Source: Strigamia acuminata (lineage: Eukaryota; Arthropoda; Chilopoda; Geophilomorpha; Linotaeniidae). From it: 64,000 nucleotides of DNA. The notes under the pieces were generated by a model. The model saw nothing but the letters and a program-made list of their open reading frames with translations, made no database searches and was not told the origin of the DNA. Each line of letters begins with the position of its first letter. Position 1 is the first letter of the stretch. The stretch spans positions 164,001-228,000 of the forward strand of contig CASHSZ010000091.1 of assembly GCA_949358305.1 (NCBI GenBank), written 5' to 3'. A program made the position numbers and the translations under genes. Below, piece by piece: positions 2,260-62,111 of the stretch.

Positions 2260-4247
2260 CTATTCTCCCAAATCATCGGTTGGATGTTTCTAAAACTTAC
2301 ATTGGAGCCTTCTACTAAGGTTTAAACACTATTTCTGAACATTCAGAGACATTGGTCTTGTGGTGTTTGTGCTAAGTCAACTGTGATGAGATCAAAAGTC
2401 TATTCTCCCAAATCATCGGTTAAATGTTTCTAAAACTTACATTGGAGCCTTCTACTAAGGTTTAAACACTATTTCTGAACATTCAGAGACATTGGTCTTG
2501 TGGTGTTTGTGCTAAGTCAACTGTGATGAGATCAAAAGTCTATTCTCCCAAATCATCGGTTGGATGTTTCTAAAACTTACATTGGAGCCTTCTACTAAGG
2601 TTTAAACACTATTTCTGAACATTCAGAGACATTGGACTTGTGGTGTTTGTGCTAAGTCAACTGCGATGTGAAATGAGCTCAAAATTTTTTTTTCAAAATT
2701 TATTGCTTGGGTGTTGCTAAAACTTAGATTGAAGGCTTCTACTAAGGTTTAAACACTATTTCTGAACATTCAGAGACATTGGTCTTGTGGTGTTTGTGCT
2801 AAGTCAACTGCGATGTGAAATGAGCTCAAAATTTTTTTCTTCAAAATTTAATGCTTGGGTGTTGCTAAAACTTATATTGAAGGCTTCTACTAAGGTTTAA
2901 ACACTATTTCTGAACATACAGAGACATTGGACTTGTGGTGTTTGTGCTAAGTAACTGTGATGAGATCAAAAGTCTATTCTCCCAAATCATTGCTTGGATG
3001 TTGCTAAAACTTACATTGAAGGCTTCTACTAAGGTTTAAACACTATTTCTGAACATTCAGAGACATTGGTCTTGTGGTGTTTGTGCTAAGTCAACTGTGA
3101 TGAGATCAAAAGTCTATTCTCCCAAATCATCGGTTGGATGTTTCTAAAACTTACATTGGAGCCTTCTACTAAGGTTTAAACACTATTTCTGAACATTCAG
3201 AGACATTGGTCTTATGGTGTTTGTGCTAAGTCAACTATGATGAGATCAAAAGTCTATTCTCCCAAATCATCGGTTGAATGTTTCTAAAACTTACATTGGA
3301 GCCTTCTACTAAGGTTTAAACACTATTTCTGAACATTCAGAGACATTGGTCTTGTGGTGTTTGTGCTAAGTCAACTGTGATGAGATCAAAAGTCTATTCT
3401 CCCAAATCATCGGTTGGATGTTTCTAAAACTTACATTGGAGCCTTCTACTAAGGTTTAAACACTATTTCTGAACATTCAGAGACATTGGTCTTGTGGTGT
3501 TTGTGCTAAGTCAACTGTGATGAGATCAAAAGTCTATTCTCCCAAATCATCGGTTGGATGTTTCAAAAACTTACATTGGAGCCTTCTACTAAGGTTTAAA
3601 CACTATTTCTGAACATTCAGAGACATTGGTCTTGTGGTGTTTGTGCTAAGTCAACTGTGATGAGATCAAAAGTCTATTCTCCCAAATCATCGGTTGAATG
3701 TTTCTAAAACTTACATTGGAGCCTTCTACTAAGGTTTAAACACTATTTCTGAACATTCAGAGACATTGGTCTTGTGGTGTTTGTGCTAAGTCAACTGTGA
3801 TGAGATCAAAAGTCTATTCTCCCAAATCATCGGTTGGATGTTTCTAAAACTTACATTGGAGCCTTCTACTAAGGTTTAAACACTATTTCTGAACATTCAG
3901 AGACATTGGTCTTGTGGTGTTTGTGCTAAGTCAACTGCGATGTGAAATAAGCTCAAAATTTTTTTTTCAAAGTTTATTGCTTGGGTGTTGCTAAAACTTA
4001 CATTGAAGGCTTCTACTAAGGTTTAAACACTATTTCTAAACATTCAGAGACATTGGTCTTGTGGTGTTTGTGCTAAGTCAACTGCGATGTGAAATGAGCT
4101 CAAAATTTTTTTTTCAAAATTTAATGCTTGGGTGTTGCTAAAACTTATATTGAAGGCTTCTACTAAGGTTTAAACACTATTTCTGAACATTCAGAGACAT
4201 TGGACTTGTGGTGTTTGTGCTAAGTCAACTGTGATGAGATCAAAAGT
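2260..4247. repeat. Satellite higher-order block, copy 1 (offset 3974 bp)
   Basis: A run of about 14 monomers recurs about 2 kb long at 6234-8221. Markers confirm the register: the CGATGTG start of a B monomer at 2664 and 6638, the private CTTATGG variant at 3211 and 7185, the private AACTATGATG variant just after it in both, and AATAAGCTC B monomers starting at 3938 and 7912. All give offset 3974. One base is missing from GGTTTAAAC near 6577, so the left part is at offset 3975. Edges are approximate, read from where the variant order diverges. Confidence 0.8.
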
Positions 4248-4270
4248 TTATTCTCCCAAATCATTCGTTG

Positions 4271-5828
4271 GATGTTTCTAAAACTTACATTGGAGCCTTC
4301 TACTAAGGTTTAAACACTATTTCTGAACATTCAGAGACATTGGTCTTGTGGTGTTTGTGCTAAGTCAACTGTGATGAGATCAAAAGTCTATTCTCCCAAA
4401 TCATCGGTTAAATGTTATAAAACTTACATTGGAGCCTTCTACTAAGGTTTAAACACTATTTCTGAACATTCAGAGACATTGGTCTTATGGTGTTTGTGCT
4501 AAGTCAACTGTGATGAGATCAAAAGTCTATTCTCCCAAATCATCGGTTGGATGTTTCTAAAACTTACATTGGAGCCTTCTACTAAGGTTTAAACACTATT
4601 TCTGAACATTCAGAGACATTGGTCTTGTGGTGTTTGTGCTAAGTCAACTGTGAAGTGAAATGAGCTCAAAATTTTTTTTTCAAAGTTTAATGCTTGGGTG
4701 TTGCTAAAACTTATATTGAAGGCTTCTACTAAGGTTTAAACACTATTTCTGAACATTCAGAGACATTGGTCTTGTGGTGTTTGTGCTAAGTCAACTGCGA
4801 AGTGAAATGAGCTCAAAATTTTTTTTTCAAAGTTTAATGCTTGGGTGTTGCTAAAACTTATATTGAAGGCTTCTACTAAGGTTTAAACACTATTTCTGAA
4901 CATTCAGAGACATTGGATTTGTGGTGTTTGTGCTAAGTCAACTGTGATGAGATCAAAAGTCTATTCTCCCAAATCATCGGTTGGATGTTTCAAAAACTTA
5001 CATTGGAGCCTTCTACTAAGGTTTAAACACTATTTCTGAACATTCAGAGACATTGGTCTTGTGGTGTTTGTGCTAAGTCAACTGTGATGAGATCAAAAGT
5101 CTATTCTCCCAAATCATCGGTTGAATGTTTCTAAAACTTACATTGGAGCCTTCTACTAAGGTTTAAACACTATTTCTGAACATTCAGAGACATTGGTCTT
5201 GTGGTGTTTGTGCTAAGTCAACTGTGATGAGATCAAAAGTCTATTCTCCCAAATCATCGGTTGGATGTTTCTAAAACTTACATTGGAGCCTTCTACTAAG
5301 GTTTAAACACTATTTCTGAACATTCAGAGACATTGGTCTTGTGGTGTTTGTGCTAAGTCAACTGCGATGTGAAATAAGCTCAAAATTTTTTTTTCAAAGT
5401 TTATTGCTTGGGTGTTGCTAAAACTTACATTGAAGGCTTCTACTAAGGTTTAAACACTATTTCTAAACATTCAGAGACATTGGTCTTGTGGTGTTTGTGC
5501 TAAGTCAACTGCGATGTGAAATGAGCTCAAAATTTTTTTTTCAAAATTTAATGCTTGGGTGTTGCTAAAACTTATATTGAAGGCTTCTACTAAGGTTTAA
5601 ACACTATTTCTGAACATTCAGAGACATTGGACTTGTGGTGTTTGTGCTAAGTCAACTGTGATGAGATCAAAAGTTTATTCTCCCAAATCATTCGTTGGAT
5701 GTTTCTAAAACTTACATTGGAGCCTTCTACTAAGGTTTAAACACTATTTCTGAACATTCAGAGACATTGGTCTTGTGGTGTTTGTGCTAAGTCAACTGTG
5801 ATGAGATCAAAAGTCTATTCTCCCAAAT
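4271..5828. repeat. Satellite higher-order block, copy 1 (offset 4121 bp)
   Basis: A run of about 11 monomers is repeated at about 8392-9949. Markers: the AATGTTATAA variant at 4411 and 8532, the TGAAGTGAAATGAG variant at 4651 and 8772, and AAGTTTATTC at 5671 and 9792, all offset 4121. Inside this area a shorter offset of 1427 bp is also seen (AAGTTTATTC at 4244 and 5671; AATGTTATA at 8532 and 9959; TGAAGTG at 8772 and 10199). This shows nested amplification units. Edges are approximate. Confidence 0.75.
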
Positions 5829-23918: not shown

Positions 23919-23922
23919 AGTC
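23919..23922. repeat. Target site duplication AGTC, left
   Basis: The satellite monomer reads ...CAAAAGTC immediately before the LTR, and after the 3' LTR it resumes with AGTCTATTCTCCC. The uninterrupted monomer has AAAAGTCTATTCTCCC, so AGTC was duplicated on insertion. Four to six base pairs is usual for BEL/Pao integrases. Confidence 0.9.
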
Positions 23923-25280
23923 TGTTGCTAGCAACATAAAGGAAAGTTGCTAAACGTCTTAAAAATTAGTCATCTGGAATTATTAAAAAGGGTTTTTAAT
24001 ATTTATCTTAGATTGGGAATTTAATTAGACACTTATTTGAATATAAGTCTTCTTTGAGTTAGTTTGAGTGAATTTCTCAGTACTGGTTGATCTGACCGGA
24101 TAAATCTGGGAAGAAAAGAGTTTTTACATTAGTTATTTATCCACTTAGAATTTATTTTCTATCTTGTTTACCTGTGTTATGCATGTTTTGATGTTTCCAA
24201 GTGTTTTCCTGTTTCCAGTCCACTATTGTCAATGTAGTGACAAGGTGTAATGATGCTCTCAGACAGCAAAAGGGTACTAGAATGAGAAATGTATGTTATT
24301 ATCAGTTTTAAGCTGTTTCAATCAATTTCTGTGAGTTTTCTGTATATTACTAACCAATTAAGCGTTTTGTTAACTTAGATTGTGTGTAGCCTGTCTAGTG
24401 AGCTAATTTCAAGCCTTTTTATCCTCCTGCAAGTGATCTCTGTTTACATTGTCGGCCATTACTGTGGGAGTGGTCTACTTGTATCTGTAAAGAGAGGAGA
24501 TAATGTTTAATCCCAAAGAGTTTTTGTGGGTTCTGATTAATAATTAATCACTTAATTATTATGCAATGTAAAAGTGTTAAGTTTGAGATTTATCTGTGTT
24601 GATTTATAACTTAACTTCTGCACTTACTGTAAAGTTGCCAGCTCATTGGTCTAAAATGTCTTTACTTATTCTTTTCTCTATTTTATGAGTTGTTCAGTGT
24701 GTTTTAGAGTGAATAATTTAGTTCTCAACGAGCATTGTGGTTAGAGACTGTTGTTAATGTATACTTTTGCATTTAATGTCAAATACTTGCTGTTAGGCTT
24801 ATGTGTTTTCAACTATTAACTTCTACGGTAGTTTTGTTGTGCCAGCAGTACTTATTTCTCTTTACAAGCACTTAGAGACCTCTGTAACTTTAAGTGCAAG
24901 TGTCCTTATACAATGTGGAGATAGTTACACTTGTTGTTTCTTATTATTGTTAAAGTGTGACTTCTTTGTAATATCCTCGTGATTCAATTGTAGTAGTCTT
25001 GTTAAGAATTTAGAGAATAAAATGGTTGCTTTTTATTTCTCTCCAAGTCTCATTTCTCTATACAACCAGAAAGCAATGTGCAGTGAGTAGAAAAATCCTC
25101 CTTCCTCCTCCTTGAACTCACCAGTGGCAGATCATCATGTGAAGCAGCAAGTTCAAGTCCAGTGTTTGCATTTCTTCAAGTCTTTGGCCAACTTCTGTGT
25201 ATCAATTTTAGCCAAGCAGCAGTCAAGTATTGCCGCCCCTCCTTCTGGCCTGGTTGTCGCCTGCGACCTTGCCAGAAACA
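23923..25280 (+). repeat. 5' LTR of the TK-carrying BEL-like element
   Basis: 1358 bp, TG...CA ends. Reading it against 29142-30499 I see no base difference, and the lengths are equal. It begins with the perfect 14-bp palindrome TGTTGCTAGCAACA. An AATAAA polyadenylation signal lies at 25016-25021, followed by a T-rich stretch. Near the right end is a pyrimidine tract (TCCTCCTTCCTCCTCC, about 25096). No single clear TATA box stands out; GAATATAAG near 24040 is a weak candidate. Short frames here start with non-ATG codons and are not taken as genes. Confidence 0.93.
25016..25021 (+). promoter_or_regulatory. Polyadenylation signal in LTR
   Basis: AATAAA, followed within 40 bases by a T-rich sequence. 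In the 3' LTR the same signal is at 30235-30240, where it would end the element transcript. In the 5' LTR it would have to be skipped. Confidence 0.55.
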
Positions 25281-26100
25281 ATTTGGTACCGTGAACCCAG
25301 GATTTCTTCCAGTTATCTCAGTGGACCTTCATGTGTGCTGCAAAATTCATCAGTGGGTTTTGTTCTCAAGCTGTGCAAAGCTTTTATGTGTAAAGTGCCA
25401 TTGAAGTTGTGCCACTACAGTGAAGTGTATGCTCTCGTCCGCCTTTCACAGGCAAAAAAGTGGGTTTTTCAAGTTGGATTCTCAAATTGTCAAGATGGTC
25501 AAGATGTTTTTCAACTTGGATCAAGCAAGGCTTCGAGAGTACGAGCGATCCTGCACGACAATCAATTCCAAACACAACGCAATATACATCCTACAAGAAG
25601 ATTTGAAGAAATAATTATTAAGAATTATTATTTAAATAGAATAATATCCGAATTTGCTGCTGTAATCATTTCAAAGGAGTTTTTGATTAGAAACTGGTGT
25701 AGTTGGGGGGAGAAGAAGTTTAAGTCTTAACAGTTTGAATAAATTCTCGATTCCAGTTTGTGGAATTTAGAGAATATCCAGTGAATTAGTGAATAATACC
25801 AAGCTTTAGTGTTGGTATCCCAATTTAAAACGAGTATCTAGTCAGAAACTCAATTGTGAAAATAAGAGAATTGTCAATTACCTTTAATTATTGAATTTTG
25901 GGGGTTAATTTGCCAATCCTGTTAACATCCCGTGTGTTTCAATCCTGTTAACAGCTTGTGGATATCCATCCTGCTTTTGTGTGTTCAGTAAATCCTAGAG
26001 TGTAAAAGAATTAGACAATTTCTTGTTAACCAATTTAGTCAGTTAAGTTGAGTTTGAATCCTGAACTGATCTTTGAATTCTTCATTTCTCGGTGAGGATT
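25281..26100 (+). other. Untranslated leader of the BEL-like element
   Basis: 820 bp between LTR and ORF with no convincing coding frame. Frames here are short, start at non-ATG codons and cross the LTR boundary. Two visible oddities: a purine tract GGGGGGAGAAGAAG at 25705-25718, which looks like a retroelement polypurine tract in an unexpected place, and a direct repeat AATCCTGTTAACA at 25915-25927 and 25941-25953. The leader ends GAGGATT before the start codon. Confidence 0.7.
25284..25298 (+). other. Candidate primer binding site, BEL-like element
   Basis: TGGTACCGTGAACCC begins three bases after the 5' LTR. It starts with the TGG that pairs with a tRNA CCA end. Its first eleven bases differ at one position from what I recall as the complement of the insect tRNA-His 3' end, and a shared AGGATT follows after a short gap. 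The tRNA assignment is tentative. Confidence 0.45.
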
Positions 26101-29100
26101 ATGGCTACATTATCCGCTGCTGATCTCGAGGAAAAGGAGGTCATTTGGAAAGCAAAGGCTCAAGGAGCCGAGGATCTGCTGGGATCTTCAGTCAACATTC
26201 TAGACGGAGGAGAGCTGGAAGCCATGCAAATAACGGTTGACCAGCAATTGAGTGATCTCGCCGACGAATTGAAAGCTCTTAAAGACGAGTCAAAAAGAGA
26301 GGACTATTTAGCGGGGCTTCAACGAATTGAAGACATTAGAACCAGAGTAAATTTATTGAAGCAAAGAGCAAAAGTGTCTGGAAAAATGGCAGGGCAATTT
26401 GGTTCCCATCCGGGACAGAATTCCAGTTTAAACCAGACGTCCGCTTCATCTAGGAGAAACACGAGATTGCCGAAAACCGACATTGCCAAATTTAGTGGCG
26501 ATGCAACTGAATATAGAGGTTTTGCGAATTTATTCGAATCAGCAGTTGATCAGAACACGGAGCTTTCGAACGTGGAAAAGCTTATATATCTGAGGTCATG
26601 CTGCACTGGGGCTGCAGAATCCGCAATCAAGTCGTACCCAATAACTGATGACGCCTACCCATTAGCGAAAAACACATTGGAGAGTCTATTCGGTTCTGAA
26701 AACACGCAGAGAAATGCTATTTCAAAGATGATTAGGGAGTCGAAACCCGTTTTCGATCTCTACCCAATCGAGCCACTCAAAGCTCTATTCACGTCATTGG
26801 CATCTGCTGTCCGGACCATGGCGCAACTGTCTGTGTCAGTTGACACTACTGGAACGTACCTTATTCCAGAACTACTTAGAAAATTTCCACCGGAGATCTC
26901 CCAACGTTTTTACCGAAAGCATCAAGGAAAAGTTGATGATGTTAACGTTTTTCTGGACTTCGTAGCAACCGAGATACAACTGGCTGAATTGTCGGAAGAA
27001 AGCGTTCTCCTTAAGCGCGCTCATCTGAAGAAGTCAGAAAAATTTGAGAAAACTTCAAAGGAAACAAGAGAAAGACCAACTGGAACCATGTCCTCATTCG
27101 TGACTTCCGAGAATGGAAAATTGAGTATGAATTCCAAGTCAAATCCAAACCGCAAACCCGCCTGCGCTTATTGTGATGGTGATCACGCACACGCAAATTG
27201 TGATGCGGATCTCGATGTACCAGCGAGGATCGAAATAGTGAAGAAGAAACGACTTTGTTTCAACTGCTTGAGATATAACCACACAGCCAAAGAATGTACC
27301 GTGAAGTTTTGTTGTCGCTTGTGTGGTGGAAGACATCACACATCGATCTGCAACAAAAACAACAAAGAAAAAGCGATTACACCAAAAGAAGAAAACGTGT
27401 CTACTAATGTATCGCTTACCGAGTCGGTGGAGATTCAACTGATGGTCTTCACTGCTCTTTTTGTGAAGAAAAATGGAGACATGTACCCCGTCCGCGGATT
27501 ACTAGATCCAGGAAGTCATCGCTCCTACGTCACGAAGAGACTAGTAAATAAATTCCGGATGCAAAAGATCGAGACACTACACACGATGACACAGTGTCTG
27601 CTCAACAAAAAGCCAGTTCCGACGACACATGATGTCTTTAGATTCGAACTGCAATCAAGACACGGAACGGAAAAGACATCAATCCTTGCATTAGAAACCG
27701 ACACGCTCCCGAAAGTCAAAGGGATAATTGGAGCAGAAGCCATAAAGCAGGTCCAATCACTCGGACTTGAGATGGCTGAGATACATCCGTCAGAATCGGA
27801 AGACATTGACGTCTTATTAGGAAGCAACGCATGGTGGAAGATTTGTCAAGGTGGAAGCCGAAAAATCAACGACGAGTTGGGATTAATGCAGACAATTTTT
27901 GGGTGGATTCTAAACGGTCGACTGAGACCAAACAACCCGCTTGAAGAAAACATGGCAGCGTGCAACATTTCTTGCATGGCGGTCGAGTCCAAAGAAGAAG
28001 TGATCTCAAATCAACCTGAAAATGACGAAAACAAAATAGTCCAGTTAATTCCGAAATCACCGTCCGACATGAATGGCGAACCCGGTGTGAATAAACAGAC
28101 AGACGTCACACTTTCTTGTTTTGCCGCGAGCCTCTCCAGTGGTCTGGAGAAAGAGGAACTGGATACCACCCTCCAAAAAACGAAAAAGTCGTTCAAGGAT
28201 GGAGGATTGGCCAACAGAACTTCAAGCTCGGACATGAAGCCGGAATTACGAGGGCGAAATCAGTCGGAGTCACTGAGAAAGAAAGCAAACCAAGTGCCCA
28301 GTTTACCCAAATTGTGTGCAATCTTGAGATGGACCGGAGAATTGATTTTCAATTTCTGGAAAAAGAAAAATGTCTTATCGAACAATCAAAGAGGAATTCA
28401 CCTTATCCTTGGTCCAATGTATGCTGGGAAAACGACCAAGTTATTGAAGATCTTAGAAAAAGAAGAGAAGACGTCGTCCTTGCTCATTAAGCACTCCAAT
28501 GACGAACGTTACAGTAAATCCGAAGTCGTGACCCACGATGGTCATCGACGAGAAGCAATCGCGACCAGTAGCCTAACCAATGCTGTGAAAAAAACGAAAT
28601 TAGTGAAGACAATCGGAATTGATGAAGGACAGTTTTTTCCCGACATTTTTACTTTTTCAAATGAAATGGCTGAGCAAAAGAAAAAGGTAATAGTCGCCGC
28701 ATTAGACGTCGATTTCAAGAGGAAGCCATTTGATCAGATATCCAAGTTAGTTCCACTAGCCGAGTCTGTTGTGAAACTACAAGCAAAATGTTATTTTTGC
28801 GGAGATAAAGCTGAATTTTCAAGACGAATTTCGCACGAAACCAGAGTCAAGGTGATAGGAGGGATCGACAAATACAAACCAACCTGTCGAGTATGTTTCT
28901 CAAAGCCCATGGAGTCAGTAGAGACAAAAAGGAAAATCATCAACGGAATTATTCGACTTAGTTGTATGATTGTCAACCGAAGAATACCTCCGTGGATACC
29001 ATATTTGATCCGTCAAAGAATCTTGCCATCCAGAGTGAAATACAAAAAGGTGAAAGAGGTCTCCCAAATATTATCATCAAAGACCAGAAGTAATCAAACT

Positions 29101-29106
29101 AAATGA
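26101..29106 (+). CDS. BEL/Pao Gag-protease fused to a TK1-type thymidine kinase
   Basis: 1001-residue polyprotein. The ATG at 26101 is chosen because the frame opens only nine bases earlier with GTG and because the ATG has A at -3 and G at +4. Residues 1-100 are helical and charged. About 120-290 match the Pao-type Gag domain (DUF1759: LPKTDIAKFSG, then the LFESAVDQN region). Three zinc knuckles follow: C358/H362/C367 with C355, C386-C389-H394-C399, and C405-C408-H412-C417. A retropepsin-like A17 region spans about 440-610, with LLDPGS at 467-472, VLLG at 571-574 and GWILNG at 601-606. The usual catalytic DSG/DTG is DPG (469-471), so activity is doubtful. Residues 611-763 are an unrecognised linker. 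Residues 764-936 are a thymidine kinase, then a basic 65-residue tail. RT, RNase H and integrase are missing. The kinase is not set off by a stop or frameshift, so it is made as a Gag fusion unless processed. Function in dTMP supply is inferred. Confidence 0.93.
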   Translation: MATLSAADLEEKEVIWKAKAQGAEDLLGSSVNILDGGELEAMQITVDQQLSDLADELKALKDESKREDYLAGLQRIEDIRTRVNLLKQRAKVSGKMAGQFGSHPGQNSSLNQTSASSRRNTRLPKTDIAKFSGDATEYRGFANLFESAVDQNTELSNVEKLIYLRSCCTGAAESAIKSYPITDDAYPLAKNTLESLFGSENTQRNAISKMIRESKPVFDLYPIEPLKALFTSLASAVRTMAQLSVSVDTTGTYLIPELLRKFPPEISQRFYRKHQGKVDDVNVFLDFVATEIQLAELSEESVLLKRAHLKKSEKFEKTSKETRERPTGTMSSFVTSENGKLSMNSKSNPNRKPACAYCDGDHAHANCDADLDVPARIEIVKKKRLCFNCLRYNHTAKECTVKFCCRLCGGRHHTSICNKNNKEKAITPKEENVSTNVSLTESVEIQLMVFTALFVKKNGDMYPVRGLLDPGSHRSYVTKRLVNKFRMQKIETLHTMTQCLLNKKPVPTTHDVFRFELQSRHGTEKTSILALETDTLPKVKGIIGAEAIKQVQSLGLEMAEIHPSESEDIDVLLGSNAWWKICQGGSRKINDELGLMQTIFGWILNGRLRPNNPLEENMAACNISCMAVESKEEVISNQPENDENKIVQLIPKSPSDMNGEPGVNKQTDVTLSCFAASLSSGLEKEELDTTLQKTKKSFKDGGLANRTSSSDMKPELRGRNQSESLRKKANQVPSLPKLCAILRWTGELIFNFWKKKNVLSNNQRGIHLILGPMYAGKTTKLLKILEKEEKTSSLLIKHSNDERYSKSEVVTHDGHRREAIATSSLTNAVKKTKLVKTIGIDEGQFFPDIFTFSNEMAEQKKKVIVAALDVDFKRKPFDQISKLVPLAESVVKLQAKCYFCGDKAEFSRRISHETRVKVIGGIDKYKPTCRVCFSKPMESVETKRKIINGIIRLSCMIVNRRIPPWIPYLIRQRILPSRVKYKKVKEVSQILSSKTRSNQTK
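28390..28908 (+). other. Thymidine kinase domain (TK1 type) captured in the ORF
   Basis: Residues 764-936 of the polyprotein. The order of motifs is that of cytosolic TK1: P-loop GPMYAGKT (771-778, with the Lys and Thr that bind phosphate), DERY (801-804), THDG (811-814), IDEGQFFPD (840-848, with the catalytic Glu842), ALDVDFKRKPF (867-877), LVPLAESVVKL (883-893), and a lasso with zinc cysteines C897, C900, C929 and C932 around VIGGIDKY (918-925). No catalytic or zinc residue is lost. The enzyme phosphorylates thymidine to dTMP using ATP. It is unlike the multisubstrate dNK family of Drosophila. Poxvirus-type TK is of the same fold, so the donor may be host or virus; a tree is needed to say which. 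Confidence 0.93.
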
Positions 29107-29141
29107 TGGGTTGTTCGCACTTTCTTTTCGCCGGCAATCTA
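29107..29141 (+). other. Spacer before 3' LTR, without a polypurine tract
   Basis: Only 35 bases separate the stop codon from the 3' LTR. They are T/C-rich (TTTCTTTTCGCC) and end CAATCTA. A working LTR element normally has a purine run of ten or more just here to prime plus-strand synthesis; none is present. Confidence 0.7.
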
Positions 29142-30499
29142 TGTTGCTAGCAACATAAAGGAAAGTTGCTAAACGTCTTAAAAATTAGTCATCTGGAATT
29201 ATTAAAAAGGGTTTTTAATATTTATCTTAGATTGGGAATTTAATTAGACACTTATTTGAATATAAGTCTTCTTTGAGTTAGTTTGAGTGAATTTCTCAGT
29301 ACTGGTTGATCTGACCGGATAAATCTGGGAAGAAAAGAGTTTTTACATTAGTTATTTATCCACTTAGAATTTATTTTCTATCTTGTTTACCTGTGTTATG
29401 CATGTTTTGATGTTTCCAAGTGTTTTCCTGTTTCCAGTCCACTATTGTCAATGTAGTGACAAGGTGTAATGATGCTCTCAGACAGCAAAAGGGTACTAGA
29501 ATGAGAAATGTATGTTATTATCAGTTTTAAGCTGTTTCAATCAATTTCTGTGAGTTTTCTGTATATTACTAACCAATTAAGCGTTTTGTTAACTTAGATT
29601 GTGTGTAGCCTGTCTAGTGAGCTAATTTCAAGCCTTTTTATCCTCCTGCAAGTGATCTCTGTTTACATTGTCGGCCATTACTGTGGGAGTGGTCTACTTG
29701 TATCTGTAAAGAGAGGAGATAATGTTTAATCCCAAAGAGTTTTTGTGGGTTCTGATTAATAATTAATCACTTAATTATTATGCAATGTAAAAGTGTTAAG
29801 TTTGAGATTTATCTGTGTTGATTTATAACTTAACTTCTGCACTTACTGTAAAGTTGCCAGCTCATTGGTCTAAAATGTCTTTACTTATTCTTTTCTCTAT
29901 TTTATGAGTTGTTCAGTGTGTTTTAGAGTGAATAATTTAGTTCTCAACGAGCATTGTGGTTAGAGACTGTTGTTAATGTATACTTTTGCATTTAATGTCA
30001 AATACTTGCTGTTAGGCTTATGTGTTTTCAACTATTAACTTCTACGGTAGTTTTGTTGTGCCAGCAGTACTTATTTCTCTTTACAAGCACTTAGAGACCT
30101 CTGTAACTTTAAGTGCAAGTGTCCTTATACAATGTGGAGATAGTTACACTTGTTGTTTCTTATTATTGTTAAAGTGTGACTTCTTTGTAATATCCTCGTG
30201 ATTCAATTGTAGTAGTCTTGTTAAGAATTTAGAGAATAAAATGGTTGCTTTTTATTTCTCTCCAAGTCTCATTTCTCTATACAACCAGAAAGCAATGTGC
30301 AGTGAGTAGAAAAATCCTCCTTCCTCCTCCTTGAACTCACCAGTGGCAGATCATCATGTGAAGCAGCAAGTTCAAGTCCAGTGTTTGCATTTCTTCAAGT
30401 CTTTGGCCAACTTCTGTGTATCAATTTTAGCCAAGCAGCAGTCAAGTATTGCCGCCCCTCCTTCTGGCCTGGTTGTCGCCTGCGACCTTGCCAGAAACA
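29142..30499 (+). repeat. 3' LTR of the TK-carrying BEL-like element
   Basis: 1358 bp, constant offset of 5219 from the 5' LTR and no difference seen. It ends AGAAACA and is followed by the AGTC target duplication and the rest of the broken satellite monomer. The short frame crossing its right end into satellite DNA is not a gene. Confidence 0.93.
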
Positions 30500-30503
30500 A
30501 GTC
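30500..30503. repeat. Target site duplication AGTC, right
   Basis: AGTC directly after the CA end of the 3' LTR, continuing as TATTCTCCC in the register of the interrupted A monomer. Confidence 0.9.
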
Positions 30504-56778: not shown

Positions 56779-57198
56779 AAGTGCTTCAAGTCTAAGGATT
56801 GTGTCTTCGAATTTAATTATTTAACAATTGCGGAATCCAAACGTTATAACTTTTCACAAGTGGTAACGGATTATTTGTTTTCATCAAAAGATCCGGGAGC
56901 ACTTGAATCACTGGATGATAAGGTGACTGACCGGAAAAAGAGATCAAAATCCAAAGGAGAAGAAAAAATTCAAAAAAGGGAAGATTTTGAAACCCCGGAA
57001 CAGCGCCATAAAAGAATAATCGATCCAAGTGTGTACAATTTGTTGTTGCCTGACGAAGCTACGGAATTAGGCAATCTCCTGGATAAAGTGCAAGCAAATT
57101 TGGACGACGCATTTGAGGACGCAACTGACAATATTGAGGACCAAAAGGAATTAATTCAACCAATATTGGCAATTAAAAACGAACAATTTCCAGATAAT
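56779..57198 (+). other. Open frame upstream of gag without an ATG
   Basis: 140 codons in the gag frame, from just after a stop at 56776-56778 to the first in-frame ATG at 57199, contain no stop and no ATG. In DNA this AT-rich a stop would be expected every 15-20 codons, and the predicted sequence (charged, with a KKRSKSKGEEK stretch and a leucine-rich helix near 57040-57110) looks protein-like. Either Gag starts at a non-AUG codon (GTG at 56860 is one option), or the ATG was lost, or an upstream exon is spliced on. Confidence 0.5.
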
Positions 57199-58314
57199 AT
57201 GGCAAATGCTTCACCAGAACTAGTAGCAATACAGACGGTATTACAAAATTTAGTGGTCAATAGAAGAAATCCAGTTGACTTTGATCCGGCTACAGGGAAT
57301 ATTGACACATGGTTGATCGGATATGAAGATACGATCGCCGATGACACTGAAAGGATTAAACATCTGTCAATTGTGCTGAAATCCTCCGCATCATCGTGGT
57401 ATCTAGATCAACTTCCACAACATCCGACTAGAACATGGAGTCAATGGAAAGATGCGTTGAAGGCAAAATTCAGGCGACAAATAACAACAATTTTGTCGAA
57501 ATTACAGGCAATGCAGCACAAAGATGGGACAGCAATGGAACATATGCAGAAAATATTAAAAGAATGTTCTTTTGCGAGACCAGCATTTACTGAAGAACAA
57601 AAGATATTTCATGTGTTTCAAGGACTTAAAAAGGTGACTAGAGATAAATTAGTAGTCAATTTTCCAAAGACATTGGATCAGTTAACATCTCAACTTGGAC
57701 TATTGGAAGCTCATGCATTCAGCGAGGATCCTGCAGAAGTTTTGCTAACCCTACTGCAAAAAGCTGTTGATACAACAGGCGAGGTGAAACCAAGTTTGTT
57801 AGTTGAACCGAGCGACGTCAATAAATCAAAAGACGAGTTGTTAGCAGAGGTCAAAGTGCTAAGGCAACAGCAGCAGTTTGGGGAAGTTCAATATGCAGAG
57901 GTTACTCCAGTCTTCTATCAAAATCAATGGTATACACCACATCCAAACCAGGCCCAGTTCTACAATAGAGGTAACTTTAGAGGACGATCTGGACAACAAC
58001 GTGGATGGTGGAATGACAATAATAGGAACCAAGGAAGAGGATGGAGTGACAATAGAGGTCAAAACAGAGGTAATTGGAGTAATCAGTGGAATAACTCAGG
58101 TCAAGGATTCCAACAGCAAAATCCACAACAGCAGTGGAATCCACCACAACAGCAATGGAATCCACCACAAGGACAAAGACCACAGGGGAATCCAAATAAC
58201 CAAGGCCATCCTAAAAATCCAAATTATAAAGGTAAAAATTTCATTGAAAATTACCAAGGCCGAGGTCAACGAGGAGCCCCACGTGGTGGACCGCCTAATG
58301 CATCGGGAAACTAG
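57199..58314 (+). CDS. Gypsy Gag (no zinc knuckle, RG-rich tail)
   Basis: 371 residues from the first in-frame ATG, which has A at -3 and G at +4; the frame is open for a further 140 codons upstream. Residues about 25-177 fit the retrotransposon Gag core, including an FDPATGNIDTWLIGYED start, the SSWYLDQLP segment and the FRRQI helix. This part forms the particle shell. The tail from about 240 has no CCHC zinc knuckle. Instead it is rich in Arg-Gly, Trp, Asn and Gln (RGNFRGR, RGQNRG, and QQWNPPQ twice in tandem) and probably binds RNA. The frame ends TAG at 58312-58314, immediately after the GGGAAAC slippery heptamer. Gag is made in excess over Gag-Pol if the frameshift works as in related elements. 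Confidence 0.85.
   Translation: MANASPELVAIQTVLQNLVVNRRNPVDFDPATGNIDTWLIGYEDTIADDTERIKHLSIVLKSSASSWYLDQLPQHPTRTWSQWKDALKAKFRRQITTILSKLQAMQHKDGTAMEHMQKILKECSFARPAFTEEQKIFHVFQGLKKVTRDKLVVNFPKTLDQLTSQLGLLEAHAFSEDPAEVLLTLLQKAVDTTGEVKPSLLVEPSDVNKSKDELLAEVKVLRQQQQFGEVQYAEVTPVFYQNQWYTPHPNQAQFYNRGNFRGRSGQQRGWWNDNNRNQGRGWSDNRGQNRGNWSNQWNNSGQGFQQQNPQQQWNPPQQQWNPPQGQRPQGNPNNQGHPKNPNYKGKNFIENYQGRGQRGAPRGGPPNASGN
58305..58311 (+). promoter_or_regulatory. -1 ribosomal frameshift site GGGAAAC
   Basis: The heptamer is in the correct phase (G GGA AAC) in the gag frame, and the next codon is the gag stop TAG. A -1 slip enters the pol frame, which is open from 58299 with no stop before the pol domains. GGGAAAC is an established slippery heptamer, used at the gag-pro junction of simian type D retroviruses. 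I see no obvious strong stem just downstream; the next 60 bases are purine-rich. Confidence 0.75.
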
Positions 58315-58385
58315 AATGGCCACAAAGACGAAATAACAAGAAGAAAAGAAGAAAGAGAAAATTAGAAATCATCGAGTTACACGCT

Positions 58386-61300
58386 ATGGACGAACTTTTA
58401 CAGATTCCAGTAGTATTAAATGGTATGGAAATCACTGGTGTCTTGGATTCTGGAGGTTTTCGCAATATCATTAGTGAAGATTTGGTGAGAACTCTGCAGC
58501 TCAAATATCAGCCTTGTCCAGGTGTTCGATTGAGAGTTGTGGATGGCTCATTGATAGTCCCAGAAGGAAAAACCAGGATTACCATTGATGTTGGACAACA
58601 ACAACACACCATCGACGTATTGATCGTTAATGGATTTGGACGCCACTTACTACTGGGAGATAATTTCTTAAGATCTGCAAAGTGTAAACTCGACTATGAC
58701 CAACAGAAGATCTTTGTAGGCCCAAAAAATGAACAACAAGAAGTTTTCCCAATGTCAAAGAATTATACTGATGTAAACTACATAGCCCGAGTTTTAAAAC
58801 CGATAACAATTCCAGCATTACATGAATGTGTAGTTCCAATTAAAATTGCAAAGAAAGTAGATGATGAACTATTTATAGAACCACTCAGTGGAGTAATTGA
58901 TCGCTTTGGAGTAATTTGTTGCAAAACATTGACTAAATTCAGAAAAGGTGAAGGAGTTCTGCGAGTTGCAAATCCAACTAAAAAGACAATCTATTTAGGA
59001 AAAAACTCAGCAATTGCAAAGGCCTTTTATGTAATTGAGTCTGGCGTGCTTGATGAAAACAGAGTTAATCAATTTGACTTTAGCACGGCCATGGCGAATG
59101 ACAACATGACGCCATCACAACAAGGGCTAATGTTGCGGTTGCTGGAGAAAAATTCGGATAGATTTGCGAAGACTGACAATGATTTAGGCAGAGCTCATAC
59201 GATTAAACATCGAATTGATACTGGAGATTCTCCTCCAATCCATTTACAACCTTATAGACGATCGATTAAGGAAAAAGAAATCGAGGATGCTGAAACAAAG
59301 AAGTTACTTGAGCAAGGAGTCATTAGAGAATCTGAGAGCCCATGGAGTGCACCAGTACTACTCGTCAAGAAAAGAGACGGCAAATGGAGATTTTGTGTTG
59401 ATTGGAGACGGTTAAACGCGGTAACAAAGAAAATGGTTTATCCCTTACCACGTATTGATGACACCCTAGATCAATTAGCGGGTGCGAAGTATTTTTCAAT
59501 GATGGATCTTATCCAGGGATATCACCAAGTCGAAATAGACGAACAAGATCGTGAAAAGACAGCGTTTACCACGTCTAGTGGACATTATGAGTTTAATGTC
59601 CTTGGAATGGGATTATGTAACAGCCCGGCCGCCTTTCAAAAATTGATGAATAAAGTACTTGGTAACCTCCTGGGAAAAGTATGTATTGCATATCTGGACG
59701 ATTTGATAGTGTTTTCGAAGACTTTCGATCAGCATCTTGTTGATTTGGAGGCAGTTTTCCAAAAGCTTAGAACAGCGAATCTCAAAGTCAAACTGAGTAA
59801 ATGTACGTTTGCGACACACACCATACGATATCTCGGACATGTGGTTGATGCTGAAGGTATTTCACCGGATCCCAGGAATCTGGATTCAGTAGCTAAGTTT
59901 CCAATTCCTGTGAACGTTAAACAACTACGTGGTTTTTTAGGATTATGCTCGTATTACCGGAAATTTATTAAAGGTTTTGCGGACATTTCCAAACCTCTGG
60001 TGAATTTAACCAAAAAGGATGAAAAGTTTGACTGGGGACCACCCCACGACAAAGCATTCCACACGCTCCGAAATGCATTAATAACAGTGCCGGTGTTAGC
60101 GCATCCAGATTTTACTCAGCCCTTCATGATTTCATGCGATGCAAGTGCCTATGGATTAGGAGCTATTTTGAAGCAAAAAGTCAACAATCAAGAGCGTGTT
60201 ATCGCTTATGCAAGTCGTATGATGAGCACAGCAGAAATGAATTACACTGCAACTGATAGGGAAATGTTAGCAATCATTTTTGCTATTGAAAAGTTTAGAC
60301 CGTACTTATATGGACAGAAATTCCAAATTATTACCGACCATTCTGCCCTCCAATGGCTGAAAGGAGTCCGAAATCCAAATGGACGTCTAGCCAGGTGGGC
60401 GCTGCAATTAGCTGAGTATGATTTTGAAATATTTCATAAAAGCGGCAAGAAACATACAGATGCCGATGCTTTAAGTAGGATCCAGGAAGAATTAAGTGAA
60501 GAAGAAATAGAAAAATTACCTTCGCTTTTCTTAGAAAACTTGGACCTCCCTGTTGAACAGAGGAAGGATCCCAAATTACTGGACCTCATAACAGCGCTAG
60601 AAAACCAAGAGCAACTTCCAAGAAAAAGAAGACGACCACTAAAGCAGTTCGTTCTTCAAAACAAAACATTGTTCAGGAAGAAAAAACTTAACAGTTCCCT
60701 GAACATGGAAGATTTATTACTAGTAGTTCCAAAACAACTTCAAAAAGATGTATTGTATGAAATGCACGATGGATTACTAGGAGCTCATTTGGGATTGGCA
60801 AAAACGTGGAAACGAATAAGAACACGATTTTTCTGGACAAGAATCTATAAAGATGTTAGAAATTACGTCTTGTCCTGCCAACACTGCGCAAAAGCAAAAA
60901 CAATGACAACGCCAGCTAAAGGATTAATGCAGCCATGGTCAACAGTCTCAAAACCTTTTGAGCGAATTGGAATAGACACACTAGGACCATTTCCATTGTC
61001 ACGACTTGGAAATAAACATGTTTTTGTTGTAACTGATTATCTTTCTAGAAATGCAATAGCTAGACCAGCAGCAGCAGCTACAGCGTTAGAAGCAGCAAAA
61101 ACATTGCTTTATGAAGTTATTCTGAAAGAAGGCAGTCCGAGAGAAATCCTAAGCGACCGTGGAACGGAATACAGGAACAAAATGGTTGAGGAGGTCTCAA
61201 ATATGTTTAAAAGTTTGCATAAAACTACGTCAGGATACCATCCAAGAACAAATGGATTAACTGAGAGATTTAATGCGACATTCGCAAAAATGTTGCAAAG

Positions 61301-62111
61301 TTACGTCAATGATGAACACACTGACTGGGACGAATTTCTTCCATTTCTCCTGTTTTCATATAACACGGCCGTTCATGAAACAACAGGATATACACCACAC
61401 TATTTACTTCGTGGATATGATGTGGATTTGACAGTAGATGTTAATTTGGACTTGCCACAGAAAGAATATACATTAAGAACAGCAAAATTCATTCGAGCAG
61501 CCAGGAAAATTGCAAATGAGAGACTTGAAAAACAATCTGCAAAAAGTAAGAAAAGATTTGATGAAGACAGAGTCAACAAAGAATTTGAACCAGGTGAATT
61601 GGTTTATCTAAAAACCATCAACAGAAAAGTTGGCCTGTCAGAGAAGCTTTTACCCCAATTTTCCGGCCCGTATGAAATTGTGCGAAGAACTGCACCTAAT
61701 GACTATGAAATCATCAATTCTACAAGAAAGAAAAGTGACATAGTGAATGTAGAAAGGTTAAAACCATATAAGGAACGAATTGAAGAAGAAATAGATGAAG
61801 TTCTGAAAGATATGCCAGAAAAGAAAGTGAAATTTGCTGATAAAGTGAAAAAAATCAGTAAAAAAGGTGAAATTGTAGTTGAAAACACAGAAAAACTAGT
61901 GAGAACAACGAAAATTAAGCCAAAAGAACGTTATATAGATGATACAGAACAGATTTCTCTAAAATCACTATTTGAACCACAGCCTACGGTGAAAACGAAT
62001 GAAAATCAACTTCAAAACCCGCCACTAGATGGCGCAAGTCCACAAACCAACGATTTCCGGTCGCGCAGACTCAGACCGCGTAAGCGAAAAGACTATCGCC
62101 ATTTCTACTGA
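58386..62111 (+). CDS. Gypsy Pol: protease, reverse transcriptase, RNase H, integrase
   Basis: 1241 codons from the ATG at 58386; the frame is open back to 58299, so entry by -1 frameshift from gag is likelier than this ATG. Aspartic protease: DSG at 21-23 and LLLGDNFL at 88-95. RT: about 310-490, with catalytic D374 (MMDLIQGY) and YLDD at 436-439. RNase H: D585 (CDASAYG), E626 and D651 (TDHS), with a late DAD at 692-694. Integrase: zinc residues H794, H801, C831 and C834, then the D864, D924, E960 triad with 35 residues between the last two, then a GPY motif at 1094-1096. All catalytic residues are present and no stop or shift is seen. The basic C-terminal tail (1130-1241) has no chromodomain. 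The enzyme set copies element RNA into DNA and integrates it. Confidence 0.95.
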   Translation: MDELLQIPVVLNGMEITGVLDSGGFRNIISEDLVRTLQLKYQPCPGVRLRVVDGSLIVPEGKTRITIDVGQQQHTIDVLIVNGFGRHLLLGDNFLRSAKCKLDYDQQKIFVGPKNEQQEVFPMSKNYTDVNYIARVLKPITIPALHECVVPIKIAKKVDDELFIEPLSGVIDRFGVICCKTLTKFRKGEGVLRVANPTKKTIYLGKNSAIAKAFYVIESGVLDENRVNQFDFSTAMANDNMTPSQQGLMLRLLEKNSDRFAKTDNDLGRAHTIKHRIDTGDSPPIHLQPYRRSIKEKEIEDAETKKLLEQGVIRESESPWSAPVLLVKKRDGKWRFCVDWRRLNAVTKKMVYPLPRIDDTLDQLAGAKYFSMMDLIQGYHQVEIDEQDREKTAFTTSSGHYEFNVLGMGLCNSPAAFQKLMNKVLGNLLGKVCIAYLDDLIVFSKTFDQHLVDLEAVFQKLRTANLKVKLSKCTFATHTIRYLGHVVDAEGISPDPRNLDSVAKFPIPVNVKQLRGFLGLCSYYRKFIKGFADISKPLVNLTKKDEKFDWGPPHDKAFHTLRNALITVPVLAHPDFTQPFMISCDASAYGLGAILKQKVNNQERVIAYASRMMSTAEMNYTATDREMLAIIFAIEKFRPYLYGQKFQIITDHSALQWLKGVRNPNGRLARWALQLAEYDFEIFHKSGKKHTDADALSRIQEELSEEEIEKLPSLFLENLDLPVEQRKDPKLLDLITALENQEQLPRKRRRPLKQFVLQNKTLFRKKKLNSSLNMEDLLLVVPKQLQKDVLYEMHDGLLGAHLGLAKTWKRIRTRFFWTRIYKDVRNYVLSCQHCAKAKTMTTPAKGLMQPWSTVSKPFERIGIDTLGPFPLSRLGNKHVFVVTDYLSRNAIARPAAAATALEAAKTLLYEVILKEGSPREILSDRGTEYRNKMVEEVSNMFKSLHKTTSGYHPRTNGLTERFNATFAKMLQSYVNDEHTDWDEFLPFLLFSYNTAVHETTGYTPHYLLRGYDVDLTVDVNLDLPQKEYTLRTAKFIRAARKIANERLEKQSAKSKKRFDEDRVNKEFEPGELVYLKTINRKVGLSEKLLPQFSGPYEIVRRTAPNDYEIINSTRKKSDIVNVERLKPYKERIEEEIDEVLKDMPEKKVKFADKVKKISKKGEIVVENTEKLVRTTKIKPKERYIDDTEQISLKSLFEPQPTVKTNENQLQNPPLDGASPQTNDFRSRRLRPRKRKDYRHFY
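62022..62035 (+). promoter_or_regulatory. CTCF-consensus match inside the pol 3' end
   Basis: CCACTAGATGGCGC fits the CTCF consensus CCASYAGRKGGCRS at every position. It lies in coding sequence near the pol C-terminus. Binding is not shown. Confidence 0.35.

What the first reader, a model, noticed from the sequence alone, without database searches (positions are those of the whole stretch)
26101..29106. LTR retrotransposon that has exchanged its polymerase for a thymidine kinase
One unbroken ORF joins BEL/Pao Gag and protease to a full TK1-type thymidine kinase, and RT, RNase H and integrase are absent. Catalytic and zinc residues are all present, the ORF is intact and the LTRs look identical, so selection or very recent capture kept the enzyme whole. 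I know of no described LTR element with this arrangement. A Gag-tethered kinase could load dTMP synthesis into or near the particle, helping a partner polymerase in cells with little dTTP. The role is inference.
Basis: partly seen in the sequence, partly recalled or inferred. Interest (0 to 1): 0.93.

Follow-up and report, generated by a model that had tools for sequence, protein, structure and literature searches.

The report
Retrotransposon family carrying thymidine kinase
In a centipede genome, families of jumping genes have kept their particle protein but carry, where their copying enzyme should be, a thymidine kinase that evolution has kept intact, which suggests that a mobile element can live by bringing its own DNA-precursor enzyme.

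Summary
Confirmed and extended. The window copy is an LTR element (identical 1358-bp LTRs, 4-bp target duplication, inserted in a 140-bp satellite). Its single ORF joins BEL/Pao Gag and a protease-like segment to a complete TK1-type thymidine kinase; no RT, RNase H or integrase was found. It is not a one-off. The genome, identified by exact scaffold lengths as the centipede Strigamia acuminata, gave 84 full-length frames among 100 Gag-TK loci scored, in two families (A, B/C) whose Gag-Pro proteins are 59% identical. Ten of ten further A copies tested have 4-5 bp target duplications. The kinase is not a recent passenger: the element kinases form one clade, amino-acid divergence between families matches that of Gag-Pro (dN 0.35 and 0.33), and it is under purifying selection (dN/dS 0.11-0.20 in the most divergent unsaturated pairs). 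A third family (H, 19 full-length copies) keeps only a P-loop relic and the tail, so activity is dispensable in at least one recently mobile lineage. Intact autonomous BEL/Pao relatives, candidates for supplying Pol in trans, are present. Best reading: an old non-autonomous BEL/Pao lineage in which TK replaced Pol, with the kinase working in or beside its own particle. Enzyme activity, partner and benefit are inferred.

The parts
23919..23922 (.). target-site duplication AGTC, left copy, in a 140-bp satellite unit
   Evidence: flanks read; empty-site 40-mer present 169 times in the window
23923..25280 (+). 5' LTR (TG...CA, 1358 bp)
   Evidence: 100% identical to 29142-30499
25284..25303 (+). 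putative primer binding site TGGTACCGTGAACCCAGGAT
   Evidence: variants of TTTTGGTGCCGTGACCAGGAT follow the 5' LTR in elements B, C, Q and X, looser in H and P; tRNA not identified
26101..29106 (+). single ORF: Gag, protease-like segment, thymidine kinase, C-terminal tail
26491..26916 (+). BEL/Pao Gag domain DUF1759 (PF03564)
   Evidence: E 4.4e-18
27256..27351 (+). two zinc-knuckle motifs
   Evidence: motif match; Pfam zf-CCHC only E 0.054
27505..27516 (+). DPGS at the aspartic-protease active-site position (DTGS in the two autonomous relatives read)
28396..28899 (+). TK1-type thymidine kinase domain (PF00265)
   Evidence: E 6.9e-55; predicted fold matches human TK1 1xbt
28411..28434 (+). P-loop GPMYAGKT
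28621..28638 (+). DEGQFF, Walker-B and catalytic Glu region (function recalled from TK1 literature)
28906..29103 (+). tail after the kinase; part of it (INxxxxLSxxxxxRRxPxWxxxLxRxxI) shared with B and H
29142..30499 (+). 3' LTR
30500..30503 (.). target-site duplication AGTC, right copy

Best explanation
This is one copy of an old non-autonomous branch of BEL/Pao LTR retrotransposons in which a cellular-type TK1 gene took the place of Pol in the one-ORF Gag-Pro-Pol plan. The element makes a Gag-TK polyprotein. Its RNA, primed at a PBS resembling that of autonomous relatives, is reverse transcribed and integrated by Pol supplied in trans by an autonomous BEL/Pao element. Because kinase and Gag are one polypeptide that can act on the RNA encoding it, the kinase can benefit its own element: it turns thymidine (or deoxyuridine) into dTMP (dUMP) at or near the particle and so eases reverse transcription when dTTP is short. 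Shown: anatomy, copy number, target duplications, single clade and purifying selection of the kinase, presence of intact autonomous relatives. Inferred: enzyme activity, trans-mobilisation by a particular partner, the dTTP benefit.
For: Element anatomy. 84 full-length Gag-TK frames of 100 loci in two families (150 scored of 236 candidates; counted). TSDs of 4-5 bp in 10 of 10 further A copies, nine distinct sites (ten of the 16 other LTR pairs visible). One kinase clade, 97/95 with 42 rows and 99/98 with 34 rows. Purifying selection: A1-A' dS 0.25, dN 0.038, dN/dS 0.15; B-B' dS 1.07, dN 0.12, dN/dS 0.11, Fisher p 4e-23; B-C 0.14 in TK and 0.13 in Gag-Pro; A-B dN 0.35 in TK and 0.33 in Gag-Pro. 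Catalytic and zinc-site residues kept; AlphaFold2 model matches human TK1, TM-score 0.86 by target length. Relative P (1752-aa ORF, LTR pair identical; A17, DUF5641 and integrase H2C2 Pfam matches over cut-off, RVT_1 only below it) and Q (2043-aa frame) present, with many more Pao frames of similar length. P has a similar LTR start (A TGTTGCTAGCAACA, P TGTTTCCAGCAACA).
Against: Family H has moved recently (LTR pair identical in the copy read, 19 of 26 loci scored full length) yet lacks the kinase core, so the activity is not required in every such lineage. No enzyme assay, transcript or particle data. Within the A1 copies dN/dS is 0.86, on few substitutions, and A1-A3 (0.34) is not significant. 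One of 30 A kinases examined has an in-frame stop and two have GPM changed to GLM. No autonomous element with a Gag close to A was seen: the best are 48-49% identical over the Gag query (133 scored of 1118 candidates), so the partner is unknown. Autonomous elements are spread along chromosomes whereas the Gag-TK loci scored sit in a few blocks. No purine-rich tract was seen beside the 3' LTR.
Confidence: 0.72

Rival explanations
1. The kinase segment is kept for a structural or regulatory job (oligomerisation of Gag, nucleotide sensing, RNA or membrane contact), not for making dTMP.
For: Family H keeps an in-frame P-loop relic and the tail without the catalytic core. Precedent read as abstract: the BIV dUTPase-related protein lacks detectable activity yet is needed for replication (PMC4261571). 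TK1 enzymes form oligomers (recalled).
Against: In A and B the P-loop, DEGQFF and zinc-site cysteines are kept over a divergence with saturated dS, with strong purifying selection over the kinase domain.
Confidence: 0.15
2. The Gag-TK copies serve the host: the centipede has little or no ordinary TK1 and uses element-encoded kinases.
For: Two protein searches of the genome (150 scored of 236; 150 scored of 200) listed only Gag-TK loci and the multi-locus D, E, F and G types, none closer than 51% to an insect TK1.
Against: A TK1 split by introns would score low in these searches and be missed. The 84 full-length Gag-TK frames lie in a few blocks, on unplaced scaffolds and on the Y. Target duplications and LTRs show element-level spread.
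Confidence: 0.06
3. Gag-TK acts against the autonomous elements, as a particle poison or a competing satellite, and the kinase is incidental.
For: All five non-autonomous types examined have DPGS at the protease site, where the two autonomous ones have DTGS.
Against: Does not explain purifying selection on the kinase itself.
Confidence: 0.05
4. Recent accidental capture or assembly artefact, amplified as a passenger.
For: The A-family LTR pairs compared in full are identical, so those insertions are young.
Against: Two families share the arrangement at 59% Gag-Pro identity with a single kinase clade, dS 1.07 within B lineages and dN/dS 0.11. Copies on many scaffolds with their own target duplications.
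Confidence: 0.02

Closest known systems
BEL/Pao LTR retrotransposons
   Same: DUF1759 Gag, zinc knuckles, one-ORF plan, LTRs TG...CA, 4-5 bp target duplications, PBS resembling that of autonomous relatives in the same genome
   Different: RT, RNase H and integrase replaced by TK1; protease motif altered
dUTPase-bearing retroviruses and LTR elements (for example bdelloid rotifer Juno, Vesta and TelKA; passages of PMC5408684 read)
   Same: an enzyme of thymidylate metabolism carried in the Gag/Pol region of a retroelement
   Different: those rotifer elements have dUTPase between PR and RT and keep Pol; here Pol is gone and the enzyme is a nucleoside kinase
Gag-only non-autonomous LTR elements (TR-GAG in plants; search listing only)
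   Same: LTR element with Gag and without Pol, presumably mobilised in trans
   Different: no captured, selected enzyme in those as far as I know (recalled)
Cellular TK1 (human 1xbt/2wvj) and poxvirus TK
   Same: fold and catalytic and zinc-site motifs
   Different: fused to Gag; two residues shorter than human TK1 after the P-loop helix; extra tail

Membership tests
LTR retrotransposon | paired LTRs with TG...CA ends and short target duplication | tested here: met
   for the window copy; 10 of 10 further A copies
LTR retrotransposon | primer binding site next to the 5' LTR | tested here: inconclusive
   shared motif in several elements, but the tRNA was not identified
LTR retrotransposon | purine-rich tract next to the 3' LTR | tested here: not met
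   the sequence read is pyrimidine-rich, TTTCTTTTCGCCGGCAATCTA, similar in H. This one usual mark is missing; LTRs and target duplications carry the assignment
BEL/Pao | DUF1759-type Gag | tested here: met
   E 4.4e-18
BEL/Pao | aspartic protease DUF1758 with D[ST]G motif | tested here: inconclusive
   weak match E 0.088; DPGS
BEL/Pao, autonomous | Pao RT/A17, RNase H, integrase | tested here: not met
   none in the ORF or in two other ORFs of the element; so it is filed only as a non-autonomous relative
Thymidine kinase 1 (type II TK) | P-loop, DEGQF motif, zinc-site cysteines, TK1 fold | tested here: met
Thymidine kinase 1 (type II TK) | thymidine phosphorylation | not testable with these tools
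   needs an enzyme assay
dUTPase-bearing retroelements | dUTPase domain | tested here: not met
   no such Pfam match in the ORF pieces

The most novel reading that the evidence does not exclude
Gag-TK elements are a distinct, long-lived class of retroelement satellites: they gave up polymerase and possibly protease, rely on relatives for Pol, and pay their way with a particle-borne nucleotide-salvage enzyme that lets reverse transcription go on in cells or at times with little dTTP, such as the male germline, where their build-up on the Y and in heterochromatin-like blocks would fit.
Probability: 0.35. Interest if true: 0.93.

Novelty: new variant of a known kind. Interest (0 to 1): 0.85.

Why it matters
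Retroelements are usually thought to draw on the cell's nucleotide pool or, at most, to guard it with dUTPase. A Gag-fused thymidine kinase kept by selection in a polymerase-less element says that precursor supply can be limiting enough for an element to carry salvage in its own particle, and that an element can persist on such a trait while borrowing its polymerase. The natural set of relatives, with kinase (A, B/C), with a kinase relic (H), and without kinase (X, P, Q), makes the question of what limits reverse transcription in animal germ cells directly testable.

Tried and rejected
Assembly artefact and single-copy insertion: rejected. Recent capture: rejected. A closely related autonomous element with the same Gag or LTR: none seen, but only 40 of 122 LTR candidates and 133 of 1118 Gag candidates were scored, so this is not excluded. 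Gag-TK fusion in other species: a search of 5.8 billion proteins for long proteins with this kinase gave one hit, a trypanosome protein named thymidine kinase with no Gag domain listed; a Gag search (7987 candidates scored, more left out) gave ten, none with a TK domain listed. That method needs shared five-letter words, so absence elsewhere is not shown. Literature: nine answered searches listed no TK-bearing LTR element, judged from titles and abstract starts; only part of the matching papers was listed, and only open-licence papers are held. An ordinary intron-containing host TK1 was sought by six-frame search and not recognised, which is not evidence of absence. dN/dS for the segment upstream of the kinase in comparisons that cross A1 and A2 or involve L019 is invalid because a 12-bp indel broke the register; the upstream figures of that call are not used. 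IQ-TREE codon models were run but their omega values were not recovered; only Nei-Gojobori figures are used. In the second tree eight long-branch rows were dropped. The trees hold 30 of the 63 homologues (counted), picked by a GPM motif among the first 49 hits.
Full report
WHAT IS THERE. The window copy runs from 23923 to 30499: two LTRs of 1358 bp without a difference, a target duplication AGTC, and one ORF, 26101-29106. It sits in a 140-bp satellite whose uninterrupted junction sequence occurs 169 times in the window. Pfam finds BEL/Pao Gag (DUF1759, E 4.4e-18), a weak protease match and a full thymidine kinase (E 6.9e-55) in the ORF, and no RT, RNase H or integrase. Two other plus-strand ORFs of 100 aa or more inside the element match nothing.

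HOST. COX1 on a 15,068-bp contig reads as an arthropod-like mitochondrial gene with the invertebrate code (the arthropod reading is mine). The Strigamia acuminata genome note (parts 1 and 2 of 3 of the text read) gives a longest scaffold of 66,985,994 bp and an N90 scaffold of 9,836,499 bp, identical to contigs C1 and C11 here; its total is 237,534,282 bp in 158 scaffolds, against 237,517,015 bp in 157 contigs here. By length in the same table C13 is the Y (10.34 Mb) and C12 the X (9.63 Mb). The assembly is 98-fold HiFi with Hi-C.

A MULTICOPY FAMILY. A DNA search with the ORF gave 40 scored of 94 candidates, 39 of them over the whole query at 97-100%. A protein search with the kinase gave 150 scored of 236 candidates. 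Sorting those rows by similarity and frame length: family A 55 loci, 47 with the full-length frame (1009 or 1013 aa stop to stop); family B/C 45 loci, 37 with the full-length frame (995 or 1002 aa). That is 84 of 100; the counts are lower bounds because not all candidates were scored. The remaining 50 rows are the D-G kinases described below. Flanks of ten further A copies (of 16 other LTR pairs visible) were read: all ten have TG...CA ends and 4-5 bp target duplications; two share flanks and were probably duplicated together, so nine distinct sites. Six of the ten lie in the 140-bp satellite, four do not. A second A copy (C21) has an LTR pair with 0 of 1358 differences.

THE KINASE IS OLD AND SELECTED. 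Gag-Pro of A and B is 59% identical, full-length-copy kinases 55-57%. In trees of 42 and 34 TK proteins, 12 of them from this genome, the element kinases are one clade (97/95; 99/98 after eight long-branch rows were dropped), so one capture explains them. Nei-Gojobori pairs: A1-A2 dN/dS 0.18; A1-A3 0.34 (not significant, p 0.11); A1-A' 0.15 (p 2e-8); A2-A' 0.20; B-C 0.14 (Gag-Pro 0.13); B-B' dS 1.07 and dN/dS 0.11 (p 4e-23). Between A and B dS is saturated, but dN is 0.35 in the kinase and 0.33 in Gag-Pro, so the two parts have diverged at the same pace. Pooled over 30 A copies the kinase gives 0.28, A1 against A2 0.26, within A2 0.19, within A1 0.86 on few changes. One of the 30 (L019) has an in-frame stop; two (L022, L023) have GPM changed to GLM. 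The 30 are the best-scoring loci, so they lean towards intact copies.

FUNCTIONAL RESIDUES. Alignment to human TK1 and to 16 homologues shows P-loop, D41, R43, D81-E82-G83-Q84-F85-F86, and C137, C140, C169, C172 kept, most of these positions invariant or nearly so. The AlphaFold2 model (mean pLDDT 79; 118 of 241 residues at 90 or more; nearly all of 211-241 under 50) matches human TK1 1xbt with E 3.9e-19 and TM-score 0.86 by target length. Which residues bind substrate or zinc is recalled from the TK1 literature.

A SISTER FAMILY WITHOUT THE CORE. Family H (26 loci scored, 19 full length at 892 aa) has Gag-Pro 46% identical to A. Its C-terminus matches a profile of A and B C-termini at 35 bits, best of 200 shuffles 6.1 bits; P, Q and X are not above the inclusion threshold (listing cut). 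The match is a P-loop relic (GPMFLGKKEK) and the tail; the catalytic core is missing. The copy read has an identical LTR pair, so H moved recently without a working kinase. On the unrooted Gag codon tree A and B join; H falls on the side of P, Q and X, its exact place differing between the two models. That an ancestor of A, B and H carried the kinase and H lost the core is likely but not fully resolved.

PARTNERS. BEL/Pao elements with Pol are plentiful: 150 scored of 1068 candidates for the Pao RT-linked domain A17, many in frames of 1737-1816 aa. Two were read. P has one 1752-aa ORF with DUF1759, DUF1758, A17, integrase H2C2 and DUF5641 matches over cut-off (RVT_1 and integrase-core matches below it) and an identical LTR pair. 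Q has one 2043-aa frame and matching LTR stretches cut by the end of the locus; its domains were not scanned with Pfam. Their Gags are only 43% (Gag-Pro) or 48-49% (Gag query) identical to A. P shares LTR-start similarity with A. Both have DTGS at the protease site; A, B, C, H and X have DPGS. X, a Q-like non-autonomous element without kinase, has it too, so the change may have happened more than once after Pol was lost. I did not test whether DPGS abolishes protease activity.

MECHANISM. In P one ORF encodes Gag-Pro-Pol; in A and B the same plan runs Gag-Pro-TK. Selection on a protein in an element that borrows its polymerase is expected only if the protein favours its own RNA, and a Gag-fused enzyme meets that condition. 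Local dTMP supply for a borrowed RT is the simplest benefit, parallel to dUTPase in retroviruses and rotifer LTR elements (passages of PMC5408684). BIV, whose dUTPase relic lacks detectable activity but is needed (abstract of PMC4261571), is a parallel for H and keeps the structural rival open. None of this was measured.

DISTRIBUTION. The 103 full-length frames of A, B/C and H counted lie in a few blocks: 24 on the Y (7.9-10.3 Mb), 23 on unplaced scaffolds, 18 on C5 (12.1-15.5 Mb), 15 on C8 (6.8-7.6 Mb), 10 on C1 (64.6-66.5 Mb), 8 on C9 and 4 on C11 (first 0.8 Mb), 1 on C4 (0.4 Mb), none on the X. The Y is about 4% of the assembly. The Pol-bearing elements listed are spread along the chromosomes, with a few in the same blocks or on unplaced scaffolds. 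The 140-bp satellite was seen at the window, at six of ten A flanks and in the B and C loci L043 and L044, but not in the H locus L049, so 'satellite-rich' is not shown for every block. Preference in targeting and removal from arms are both possible; no test was made.

OTHER KINASES. The genome also holds TKs not joined to Gag (types D, E, F, G; mostly 190-324 aa frames; 50 rows), inside repeats longer than 6 kb for G (three places match the whole 6001-bp query) and in several partial copies for E. They group with the element kinases apart from the other rows at 93/90 (not reaching the tree tool's star), so element and repeat kinases may share a centipede-lineage source. No ordinary intron-containing TK1 was recognised, which the method could easily miss.

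NOVELTY. Captured enzymes in LTR elements and Gag-only elements are both known kinds. Replacement of Pol by a nucleoside kinase with long-term selection is not described in anything listed by nine answered searches of an open-licence library (titles and abstract starts only), nor known to me. I file it as a new variant of a known kind.

Noticed in passing
L049 (C13:8665500-8673500), ORF 2782-5460; 19 full-length copies of 26 loci scored: Family H: Gag-Pro with a relic of the kinase (P-loop remnant plus tail), full-length frame and identical LTRs in the copy read, a natural kinase-minus sister family.
   Followed up: partly
L046, L047, L048; 50 rows: Single-frame TK genes outside LTR elements, repeated many times within long dispersed repeats (types D, E, F, G); carrier unknown.
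   Followed up: partly
C13 (Y), C1 64-67 Mb, C5 12-16 Mb, C8 6.8-7.6 Mb: Gag-TK and H copies scored lie in a few blocks and are enriched on the Y (24 of 103 full-length frames), while Pol-bearing BEL/Pao elements are spread along chromosomes.
   Followed up: partly
L050, L051 versus window 27505-27516, L043, L044, L049, L052: Protease site is DTGS in the two autonomous elements read and DPGS in all five non-autonomous types, perhaps convergent loss.
   Followed up: partly
window 29120-29141 and L049 just before its 3' LTR: No purine-rich tract before the 3' LTR; A and H share a pyrimidine-rich TTTCTTT...CCGGCAATCT there.
   Followed up: no
window 56779-62111: A Ty3-type retrotransposon with long open frames: capsid-like gag frame of 511 aa and pol frame of 1270 aa.
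   Followed up: no
window 28381-29103, SRRIS segment: The window's kinase and A' have Ser where human TK1 has Thr163 (B, D, E and G rows read have Thr); the title of PDB entry 2wvj says T163S in human TK1 shifts specificity.
   Followed up: no
L052 (C10:4689000-4695500): Family X: another Pol-less Gag-Pro element (822-aa frame) without a kinase, Gag-Pro 66% identical to autonomous Q, LTRs 99.7% identical.
   Followed up: no
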